Position numbers and translations under genes: made by a program. Below the pieces are notes generated by a model. It saw nothing but the letters and a program-made list of their open reading frames with translations. It had not been told where the DNA came from and did no database searches. Of a stretch of 64,000 nt of DNA, positions 1 to 38,192 are shown piece after piece. How positions within the stretch are numbered: the stretch's first letter is position 1; the number at the start of each line of letters is the position of its first letter. This DNA is from Ruegeria atlantica (GTDB lineage: Bacteria > Pseudomonadota > Alphaproteobacteria > Rhodobacterales > Rhodobacteraceae), in contig NZ_CYPU01000074.1 of NCBI RefSeq assembly GCF_001458195.1, forward strand, positions 1 to 64,000. The letters run 5' to 3'.

Positions 1-1026
1 CAGGTTGTGCCGGTGCAAGCCGATGACAAGGGCAACATCGACCTGAATGACTTCCGCGCCAAGGCGGAAAGGCATTCGGACCATCTGGCCGCCTGCATGA
101 TCACCTACCCCTCGACCCATGGCGTGTTCGAGACCACCGTTCAGGAGGTCTGCCAGATCACCCATGACCACGGCGGTCAGGTCTATATCGACGGCGCCAA
201 CATGAACGCTATGGTCGGCCTGTCGCGTCCGGGTGACATTGGCGGTGACGTCAGCCACCTGAACCTGCACAAGACCTTCTGCATCCCGCATGGCGGCGGC
301 GGCCCCGGCATGGGCCCGATCGGCGTCAAGGCGCATCTAGAGGAACACCTGCCCGGTCACCCGGAATACGGCACCGCCGTGGGCCCGGTCTCGGCCGCGC
401 CATTTGGCTCTCCGTCCATTCTGCCGGTCAGCTGGGCCTATGTGCTGCTGATGGGCGGCGCCGGTCTGACGCAGGCCACGAAAGTGGCAATCCTGAACGC
501 CAACTACATCGCGGCACGCCTGCAGGATGCCTATCCGATCCTCTACACCTCGGACACGGGCCGTGTGGCGCATGAATGCATCCTCGACACCCGACCCTTG
601 GACGAGGCGGCACAGGTCAGCGTCGACGACATCGCCAAGCGTCTGGTCGATTCCGGCTTCCACGCGCCCACCATGTCCTGGCCGGTGGCCGGTACCCTGA
701 TGGTCGAGCCCACGGAATCTGAACCCAAGGACGAGCTGGACCGCTTCTGCGACGCCATGCTGTCCATCCGGGCCGAAGCGCAGGACATCATCGACGGCAA
801 GATCGACGCGGAGAACAACCCGCTGAAAAACGCCCCCCACACGGTGCGCGATCTGGTCGGCGACTGGGACAGGCCCTACAGCCGCGAACAGGCCTGCTTC
901 CCCCCAGGCTCCATGGGCGTCGACAAATACTGGTCCCCCGTAAACCGCGTCGACAACGCATATGGCGACAGAAACCTAATCTGCACATGCCCCCCAATGG
1001 ACGCTTACGAAGAAGCCGCAGAGTAA
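1..1026 (+). CDS. gcvP: glycine dehydrogenase (decarboxylating), P-protein, C-terminal part
   Basis: This is the 3' part of the PLP-dependent P-protein of the glycine cleavage system, which decarboxylates glycine and passes the aminomethyl group to the lipoyl H-protein. The reading frame is open at base 1, so the gene starts upstream; 341 residues are present of a family length near 950. The motif [19 protein letters not shown] carries the PLP lysine at about fragment residue 91, and the C-terminal [13 protein letters not shown] block is typical of the family. A strong hairpin with a T run follows the stop, so this looks like the last gene of a gcv operon. The identification is secure; only the N-terminus is missing. 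Confidence 0.97.
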
Positions 1027-36678: not shown

Positions 36679-36780
36679 GAAAAATCCTTTGCAGTTTGAA
36701 ATGGGTTTTCGCGGGTACTATGGACGTGCTGGGGGCTTCCCGCAATTCCCGGCTGCTTGACCACGGACAGGCGCGCGGCT

Positions 36781-37137
36781 ATGGCCCCCTGCATGGAAAA
36801 GCAAAAGAAACCGTCCCGTCAGCAAGTTTATACATTGCTCGTTCAGATTGGCCGCAAAGAAGGCGACGGCTTGCCCGAAGGCGCGACCGGAGCAGCGCTG
36901 ATGTGTTTTGCTAGCGGCGTGGATGAGGCTGAAGCGGTGCGTGAAACCGTGGCGATCCTGAAACAGGCCGACACTGCGCCACTGGACGTTACCGGTTATG
37001 GAACTCTGGCCGAGCGTGAGGCGCAGGGGCACGACATCGACCCGGACGAACGCGACTTGATGCAGCGGGCCTTAGACGAAAACGCCGTTATCGTGGCGCA
37101 AATGACGCCGTTTTTCGGGGATGAAGAACCGGCTTAG
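36781..37137 (+). CDS. conserved-looking hypothetical protein
   Basis: A soluble protein of about 118 residues with no recognised domain. The N-terminal third is basic ([23 protein letters not shown]) and the rest acidic and helical, with a run [19 protein letters not shown] 36781 or 36793 could be the start; neither has a clear ribosome site. Its stop overlaps the stop of the convergent receptor-like gene by 4 bases. It sits between dapD and dapE but shows nothing tying it to lysine synthesis. Confidence 0.6.
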
Positions 37138-38192
37138 TTTCGCACCCCGAACCATTTGCGGTAAATTTCATCATAGGTGCCGTCTTCGCGCAGCGCGAGC
37201 AGAGCCTGGTTCACGTCCTCGACCAATGGCGAGCCGGTTGGGAACGCGATCCCGTAATTCTCTCGCAGAAAAACACCGCCAGTCATCGATGCGATCCGAC
37301 GTCCTTCATGCGCCGCGTAATAGGACAGGATCGGCGCGTCAAAGACAACGGCGTCCAACTCCTTATCCTGGAATGCGGTCAGCACATCATCCAGGTTTTC
37401 ATAACCGGAAAATTCAATCTCGCGCCGGTTCAGGAAGTTTGCGGCAGTTGAGTTCGAGATTGTGCCCACCTGCTTGCCGTAAAGATCGTTGACTGAGTTC
37501 ACGTTGCCGCTGATGGCATCCACGGTCATGACCGACGTGATGCGCGCTGTGAAGACCGATACGATGAACAGTGAGGACACCACCAGTACCACGCCCAGCA
37601 ACCGTCCGAACGGAGTGCGCGGCATGCGTTCCTCGAAACCGCCATTGACCACAAGATTCAGCGCCCACCAGAATGACGGGAACCATGCCTCATTCAGCTT
37701 ACGGTCGAAATAGGGCTGGGCTCGACGCTCAAACCCCCACATCAGCATCCCGCCGCCAAGCAGGATCGCAAAGGCCAGTCCGATGGCGATGAACAATTCA
37801 ACGGACAGCAAAGCGTGCAGCAGCGATGGTCTGCGCGCTGCATCCGATGGCACCATGATCTGCAGACCGGCCTCGAATATGGGCTGGCTGAAATCCATCT
37901 GCGTTTCACGCGCAGCCGTGATCGAGATATTGGCCACAGCCAGGTCCGCGGTTCCTTCCTGCACGGCACCCAGCATATCGCTGAAGGCCTCGACCCTTGT
38001 GACCGAGTAGTCCCAATTCAGTGCCTCGGACAGGGCTTGCAGCAGGTCCATTGAAAAACCGGTTTGGGCCCCGTACTCGACATAGGAAAACGGGGGGCGG
38101 GTCACGGTCGTGACCGAAAGCGTCTGCGCCTGGCTTTGCTGTGCAAGAACGGCGAAAGTCAGGCAGATCCAAACGAGAAGCGCACGTATCAT
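37134..38192 (-). CDS. ionotropic glutamate receptor-like channel (SBP_bac_3 split by pore domain)
   Basis: The 352-residue protein has a signal peptide (residues 1-22), lobe 1 of a type 3 solute-binding domain (about 25-115), a membrane helix (130-153), a re-entrant pore-like segment (172-188), a second helix (198-220) and lobe 2 (225-350). [11 protein letters not shown] aligns with the SYTANLAAF gating region of animal glutamate receptors. The pore segment reads VVNGGFE, not the TVGYG potassium filter of cyanobacterial GluR0. AGGTGA precedes ATG 38192; an in-frame start at 38240 would add an unlikely N-terminal extension. Automatic annotation would call it an amino-acid ABC binding protein, but no ABC genes are near. 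Ligand and ion are unknown. Confidence 0.8.

What the first reader, a model, noticed from the sequence alone, without database searches (positions are those of the whole stretch)
37134..38192. Bacterial homologue of ionotropic glutamate receptors with a non-potassium pore sequence
A type 3 solute-binding domain is split by helix-pore-helix, exactly the animal receptor order without the amino-terminal domain. The SYTANLAAF-like segment aligns (FTARITSVM). The pore segment has VVNGGFE, unlike TVGYG of GluR0, so it may pass other ions or serve as a sensor. It sits alone among lysine-synthesis genes.
Basis: partly seen in the sequence, partly recalled or inferred. Interest (0 to 1): 0.65.

Follow-up and report, generated by a model that had tools for sequence, protein, structure and literature searches.

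The report
Bacterial glutamate-receptor-like channel, non-potassium filter
A marine bacterium (Ruegeria) carries a real relative of animal glutamate receptors whose ion filter is not of the potassium type; this kind of gene was predicted in 2010, no test of it was found, and its filter sequence is nearly unchanged among its close relatives.

Summary
Window 38192..37134 (minus strand) encodes a 352-aa protein: signal peptide, type-3 solute-binding lobe S1, helix - re-entrant loop - helix, lobe S2. Pfam, PDB sequence search, an AlphaFold2 model and Foldseek place it with ionotropic glutamate receptors. It lacks the amino-terminal domain and M4, so it is GluR0-like, not exactly the animal order. 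It is under purifying selection (dN/dS 0.03-0.12). The filter NGGFEE aligns gap-free with TVGYGD of a K+ channel; Asn183 falls on the animal Q/R/N site, Glu187 on the acidic +4 site. NGGFEER is in 68 of 76 orthologue-like rows. A tree built without pore columns groups these 76 together with three sisters of another filter (support 0.97; 0.15 for the 76 alone). Best explanation: an amino-acid-gated cation channel that has lost K+ selectivity; conduction, selectivity and ligand are inferred. The kind is known: Ger et al. 2010 defined 'Group 2' prokaryotic iGluRs without a K+ filter. The dap neighbourhood looks like inherited chromosome backbone (the adjacent 126-aa gene is in 178 of 198 genomes, this receptor in 41), no evidence of a lysine role. 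New member of a known kind, useful for asking how glutamate receptors left K+ selectivity.

The parts
37134..38192 (-). whole gene, 352 aa, GluR0-like ionotropic glutamate receptor with NGGFEE filter (includes stop)
38127..38192 (-). signal peptide, about residues 1-22
   Evidence: hydrophobic window 1-19, helix 2-18 in the model; the cleavage site is inferred
37842..38126 (-). S1 lobe, residues about 23-117, with SITAxR motif and Arg95
   Evidence: Arg95 in 76 of 76 orthologue-like rows
37728..37802 (-). M1 helix, residues 131-155
37644..37685 (-). pore helix, residues 170-183 ([14 protein letters not shown])
   Evidence: the most conserved heptamer of the protein is FWWALNL
37626..37646 (-). 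filter NGGFEER, residues 183-189; NGGFEE equals TVGYGD of K+ channels; Asn183 at the Q/R/N site, Glu187 at +4
37509..37613 (-). second pore helix (equivalent of animal M3), residues 194-228, with [11 protein letters not shown] (SYTANLAAF equivalent)
37137..37508 (-). S2 lobe, residues about 229-352, with Ser248-Thr249 and Asp285
   Evidence: Asp285 in 76 of 76

Best explanation
An inner-membrane, GluR0-type ligand-gated cation channel. Four subunits would form one pore, with both lobes of the binding domain in the periplasm and the pore loop entering from the cytoplasm. An alpha-amino acid (glutamate- or glutamine-like) would close the S1-S2 clamshell, held by Arg95, Ser248-Thr249 and Asp285, and pull open the bundle made by the second helix. 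The filter NGGFEE stands in place of TVGYGD, so the open pore should pass cations without preferring K+: Na+, and perhaps Ca2+ because of Asn183 and the double glutamate ring 187/188. The likely use is a quick conversion of periplasmic amino acid into a change of membrane potential or ion content. Shown by computation: domain order, fold of one subunit, filter register, conservation, selection. Inferred: tetramer, orientation, conduction, selectivity, ligand, role.
For: Domain hits. The best PDB sequence match is the Nostoc punctiforme GluR0 ligand core 2PYY, 157.6 bits. AF2 mean pLDDT 83.9, pTM 0.62, with helix - pore helix - loop - helix. The 50 Foldseek matches shown are all AMPA receptors, best E 2.8e-25; VIA aligns several kainate and AMPA chains with membrane domain at Z about 24 over 289-320 residues. 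Residues 95, 248, 249, 285 are conserved in 75 or 76 of 76 orthologue-like rows. Pore helix plus filter has mean entropy 0.52 bits, against 1.56 (S1), 1.59 (M1), 1.01 (second helix) and 1.57 (S2). A tree of the binding domain alone, pore columns left out, groups the 76 orthologue-like rows with three sisters (support 0.97). Purifying selection. GluR0 of Synechocystis was reported to have both termini outside and K+ channel activity (PMC13099474, passages seen).
Against: No electrophysiology, and no oligomer model could be run. pTM is only 0.62, and whole-chain superpositions on iGluRs have rmsd 7.6 to 12.5, so the relative placement of lobes and pore is loose. By VIA the highest Z-scores go to soluble binding proteins. 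Pore-only similarity to GluN1 (24.3 bits) and GluA2 (24.5) is no greater than to a K+ channel (24.7), and three designed armadillo proteins, evidently chance matches, rank above all of these. Eight of 76 orthologue-like rows vary in NGGFEER, among them SGDYKEK and SGGFGQN. The 76 without the three TNASFTI sisters have support of only 0.15. Most sampled genomes of the family lack the gene.
Confidence: 0.58

Rival explanations
1. A receptor that no longer conducts: the pore segment is only a membrane anchor and signal relay, and the protein works as an amino-acid sensor or binding platform.
For: The canonical filter is gone; bacterial relatives show several other non-K+ loop types, some shortened by two or three residues, as might happen when conduction is not kept.
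Against: In this group the pore helix and filter are the most conserved part of the protein and dN/dS is low, hard to explain for a mere anchor. No cytoplasmic domain was found that could receive a signal.
Confidence: 0.22
2. A K+ channel with a divergent filter that still prefers K+.
For: NGGFEE lines up with TVGYGD without gaps and keeps Gly185 and an aromatic residue at 186; relatives at 34-36% identity in the alignment have TVGYGD.
Against: Threonine, valine and the second glycine of TVGYG are all replaced (by Asn, Gly and Glu); Ion_trans_2 falls below its cut-off.
Confidence: 0.12
3. An ordinary amino-acid ABC binding protein tethered to the membrane.
For: NCBIfam binding-protein models such as GlnH hit both lobes; related genes in named plasmid records are called 'transporter substrate-binding domain-containing protein'; binding proteins lead the VIA list.
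Against: All 14 NCBIfam hits lie below their curated cut-offs, and 10 of the 14 are in two separate stretches; no ABC permease or ATPase among the ten neighbours scanned with NCBIfam, nine of them also with Pfam; Foldseek ranks whole-length iGluRs first.
Confidence: 0.04

Closest known systems
Prokaryotic iGluR 'Group 2' of Ger et al. 2010 (PMC2950845)
   Same: S1 - helix - pore loop - helix - S2 order, no K+ filter, conserved Arg in S1 and Asp in S2, members annotated as glutamine-binding or solute-binding proteins. One of the ten, YP_168531.1 'glutamine ABC transporter, periplasmic', is by recall a Silicibacter (Ruegeria) pomeroyi accession; the paper's main text does not name that organism.
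   Different: The parts I read give no filter sequence for Group 2 and no division within it; NGGFEE is one of several non-K+ filter types found here.
GluR0 of Synechocystis PCC 6803
   Same: Same architecture without amino-terminal domain and M4; related binding domain (PDB 1IIT/1II5, 83.6 bits).
   Different: GluR0 carries a K+ filter and conducts K+ (PMC13099474 and PMC6385376, passages seen); here it is NGGFEE.
Nostoc punctiforme GluR0 ligand core (PDB 2PYY)
   Same: Closest solved relative of the binding domain by sequence, 41% identity over 212 residues, solved with L-glutamate according to its title.
   Different: Only the soluble core is solved; its pore was not available here. A K+-filter relative from the same family matches 2PYY better (186.2 bits) than the window protein does (157.6).
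Animal NMDA receptors (GluN1)
   Same: phmmer pairs residues 174-236 with positions 607-669 of GluN1 chains such as 6ira_A, equal lengths, which puts Asn183 on position 616, the N site (numbering recalled; the GluN1 alignment itself was not printed).
   Different: No amino-terminal domain, no M4, no cytoplasmic tail; pore-only similarity no better than to a K+ channel, so the shared Asn may be convergent.

Membership tests
Prokaryotic ionotropic glutamate receptor (GluR0 architecture) | type-3 solute-binding domain split by two membrane helices flanking a re-entrant loop | tested here: met
Prokaryotic ionotropic glutamate receptor (GluR0 architecture) | Arg in S1 and Asp in S2 that hold the amino acid | tested here: met
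   Arg95 and Asp285 in 76 of 76 orthologue-like rows; residue roles from PMC2950845
Prokaryotic ionotropic glutamate receptor (GluR0 architecture) | SYTANLAAF-equivalent segment at the end of the second pore helix | tested here: met
   [11 protein letters not shown] against YTANLAAFLTV of GluA2
Prokaryotic ionotropic glutamate receptor (GluR0 architecture) | ligand-gated ion current | not testable with these tools
   needs electrophysiology or a flux assay
Group 2 of Ger et al. 2010 | the architecture above with a pore loop that is not a K+ filter | tested here: met
   NGGFEE in place of TVGYGD
Group 1 (K+-selective) prokaryotic iGluR | TVGYG-type filter, Ion_trans_2 above cut-off | tested here: not met
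   Ion_trans_2 20.4 bits against cut-off 22.5; filter NGGFEE
NMDA receptor | Asn at the Q/R/N site | tested here: met
   register printed for GluA2 and implied by equal lengths for GluN1; that NMDA receptors have Asn there is from PMC12226733 (passages)
NMDA receptor | amino-terminal domain, M4 and cytoplasmic tail | tested here: not met
   352 aa with two membrane helices after the signal peptide
ABC amino-acid binding protein | unbroken type-3 domain, no membrane pore segment | tested here: not met
   10 of 14 NCBIfam hits in two stretches; two membrane helices inside the domain

The most novel reading that the evidence does not exclude
A bacterial amino-acid-gated, Ca2+- or Na+-permeable channel with an NMDA-like pore (Asn at the Q/R/N site, acidic +4/+5 ring). 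It would have evolved from K+-filter bacterial receptors among the Rhodobacteraceae and their kin, independently of animals: a living replay of the step by which glutamate receptors lost K+ selectivity.
Probability: 0.3. Interest if true: 0.72.

Novelty: new member of a known kind. Interest (0 to 1): 0.45.

Why it matters
The bacterial receptor whose activity I saw described (GluR0) conducts K+, while animal receptors conduct Na+ and Ca2+; how that change came about is open. This protein is small (352 residues, one gene), free of the amino-terminal domain and M4, has K+-filter relatives at 34-38% identity, two of them in genomes that also hold an NGGFEE gene, and comes from a marine genus with many sequenced isolates. 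That makes residue swaps between filters directly testable. If it conducts, it also means that many marine bacteria have an amino-acid-gated depolarising or Ca2+ signal.

Tried and rejected
ABC binding protein reading: rejected, the domain is split by a pore segment and all 14 NCBIfam hits are below cut-off. Functional link with lysine synthesis: not supported. The 126-aa neighbour 36757-37137 is in 178 of 198 family genomes, while receptors at 46% identity or more are in 41 of 198; the neighbourhood is most simply inherited backbone with the receptor kept or lost. dapD and dapE themselves were not counted genome-wide, and the site was not examined in genomes that lack the receptor. Descent of animal NMDA pores from this group: not supported; pore-only scores tie with a K+ channel. 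With pore plus S2 as query, GluN1 (53.5 bits) is the first channel listed but hardly above GLR3.4 (51.1) and GluA2 (51.0). Against a K+-filter relative used as control (L124) the window protein scores moderately higher on GluA2 (88.0 against 66.6 bits) and slightly on plant GLR3.4 (79.0 against 72.8), but lower on 2PYY (157.6 against 186.2). A second control (part of L178) was a shortened query and is not compared.

Weak or partial: rows G047 and G094 proved to be ordinary binding proteins without a pore and were dropped. The class search matched 113 of 385 genomes; 30 loci were fetched and scored, 12 of them read; those not read scored as plain K+ channels without a binding domain, and the unfetched matches were not examined (except the other copies of G331). 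The phylum search matched 78 of 398 genomes; 27 newly fetched loci were read, the rest not. Of the 88 rows at 45% identity or more, I read the pore of 43; the 45 unread are at 59% identity or more. The 80 loci were found partly with the pattern NGGFEERM, so they are left out of the filter count. Four duplicate rows were dropped before the counts. The tree is FastTree, rooted arbitrarily on L246, so the order of filter changes is inferred. No cyanobacterial sample was obtained, only one plasmid (L137). Janovjak et al. 2011, on a receptor with a K+ signature, is not held.

Literature: searches. No title or abstract start listed there concerns a receptor of Ruegeria or roseobacters, and no held paper contains 'NGGFEE'; most listed papers were not opened, and figures and supplements were not searched.

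Full report
What is there. The ORF 38192..37134 on the minus strand is a 352-aa protein with an ATG preceded by AGGTGA. Its stop overlaps by four bases the end of a convergent 126-aa gene of unknown kind. The window most likely belongs to a Ruegeria genome: the nearest named relatives are Ruegeria, at up to 99% identity. Its genome gave one match to Lig_chan and one to this protein.

Identity. Pfam gives SBP_bac_3 (102 bits), Lig_chan-Glu_bd (49 bits) and Lig_chan (45.5 bits), all above cut-off. The best PDB sequence match is the Nostoc GluR0 ligand core; glutamine-binding proteins and animal and plant receptors follow. The AF2 model (36 sequences, mean pLDDT 83.9, pTM 0.62) has the two lobes, helix 131-155, pore helix 170-183, a loop, and helix 194-228. 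The 50 Foldseek matches shown are AMPA receptors over 361-381 columns, with rmsd 7.6-12.5. VIA-align ranks binding proteins first on the lobes alone (Z up to 28.5, 214-223 residues) and kainate and AMPA chains with membrane domain near Z 24 over 289-320 residues. The gene is under purifying selection: dN/dS 0.034-0.118 in 13 comparisons, dS above 1 in 6 of them.

The filter. Against the K+ channel Lmo2059 the pore aligns without gaps, N183-G-G-F-E-E on T-V-G-Y-G-D; against GluA2, Asn183 falls on the first Q of MQQGCD and Glu187 on its D, with one gap after that D. PMC12226733 (passages) calls these the Q/R/N site and the +4 site, says that NMDA receptors have asparagine at the first and that the +4 aspartate is crucial for polyamine regulation. 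phmmer pairs residues 174-236 with positions 607-669 of GluN1, equal lengths, which puts Asn183 on position 616; that this is the N site is recalled, and that alignment was not printed. Pore-only scores do not separate animal receptors from a K+ channel (GluA2 24.5, GluN1 24.3, Lmo2059 24.7 bits; designed armadillo proteins score 26.5 by chance), so the shared asparagine is no evidence of common descent.

How far the filter is kept. I aligned 138 rows; without four duplicates there are 134, of which 76, the window protein included, are orthologue-like (43.5% identity or more). In these 76, position 183 is N in 71 and S in 5; 184 is G in 75; 185 G in 71; 186 F in 72; 187 E in 72; 188 E in 72; 189 R in 69; 191 P in 76. 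NGGFEER entire is in 68 of 76. The pore helix plus filter has mean entropy 0.52 bits, against 1.56 (S1), 1.59 (M1), 1.01 (second helix) and 1.57 (S2); NGGFEER is twelfth of 326 heptamers. Other bacterial receptors in the alignment carry GYG-type K+ filters (23 rows), a TSGK...LFGW type (17 rows) and several more. In a tree of the binding domain alone, all pore columns left out, the 76 stand together with three TNASFTI sisters (support 0.97 for the 79; only 0.15 for the 76 without them). K+-filter rows lie in several places around. Because the pore module is shared with K+ channels, I infer that NGGFEE was derived from a K+ filter; the tree has no outgroup.

Distribution. In the family sample, 52 of 198 genomes match at E 1e-20; two of these proved to be plain binding proteins, and 41 hold a copy at 46% identity or more. 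In the order sample, 106 of 390 match at E 1e-30, 88 at 45% identity or more; among them are 24 same-genus genomes besides the window's own, and no same-genus genome is among the 20 listed non-matches. In samples of 385 class and 398 phylum genomes, the NGGFEER copies read were all in the window's family; a genome of another family of the class has MGGFEKE (L185).

Neighbourhood. dapD and dapE are confirmed by NCBIfam. In the 80 loci, dapE was found in 73, dapD in 66 and the 126-aa gene in 74, some contigs being short. The 126-aa gene is in 178 of 198 family genomes and within 1 kb of the receptor in 35 of 42 receptor copies; four are not adjacent (three of these on other contigs), and for three its place was not listed (by eye). 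So the receptor sits at an old, inherited place and has probably been lost often. The surroundings do not tell its ligand.

Ligand and mechanism. Arg95 and Asp285, counterparts of the residues that hold the alpha-carboxyl and alpha-amino groups (roles in PMC2950845), are in 76 of 76, Ser248 and Thr249 in 75 of 76. An alpha-amino acid is therefore the likely agonist; which one is not predicted. Both termini outside is reported for GluR0 (PMC13099474, passages) and inferred here.

Comparison. Ger et al. 2010 (parts 1-3 of 4 of the main text) found 22 prokaryotic receptors, 12 with a K+ filter and 10 ('Group 2') whose pore they could not assign, proposed as putative glutamate-sensitive ion channels. 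This gene meets the definition of Group 2, and one listed accession is by recall from the same genus. The finding is thus a member of a known kind; no test of that kind was found in the searches. No held paper contains the string NGGFEE.

Noticed in passing
L246:1-6501: Four tandem receptor-like genes in one genome of the same class, with filters LNEAGDV (twice), TSANIDE and TSENVVD.
   Followed up: partly
L128, L138-L144, L188-L191, L195, L196, L238, L239, L243: A second non-K+ filter type (TSGK...RKNLFGWxGRI and the like), 17 rows, among them plasmid-borne copies of Agrobacterium, Paracoccus, Devosia, Roseibium and Chelatococcus; one group with support 0.999 in the binding-domain tree.
   Followed up: partly
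L124 and L125 (genomes G003, G103): TVGYGD-filter receptors in genomes that also hold an NGGFEE receptor (L023, L019): natural pairs for filter swaps.
   Followed up: no
L126, L137, L149, L150, L192, L193: Receptor-like proteins whose filter loop is shortened by two or three residues (for example TIGDEAP, DGGPPRP, SAGEMP, ATQADQMP).
   Followed up: no
36757-37137: 126-aa protein without a Pfam or NCBIfam match, present in 178 of 198 genomes sampled from the family: a conserved unknown.
   Followed up: partly
L122: Receptor copy whose reading frame diverges after about residue 299 of the window protein, perhaps a frameshift or sequencing error.
   Followed up: no
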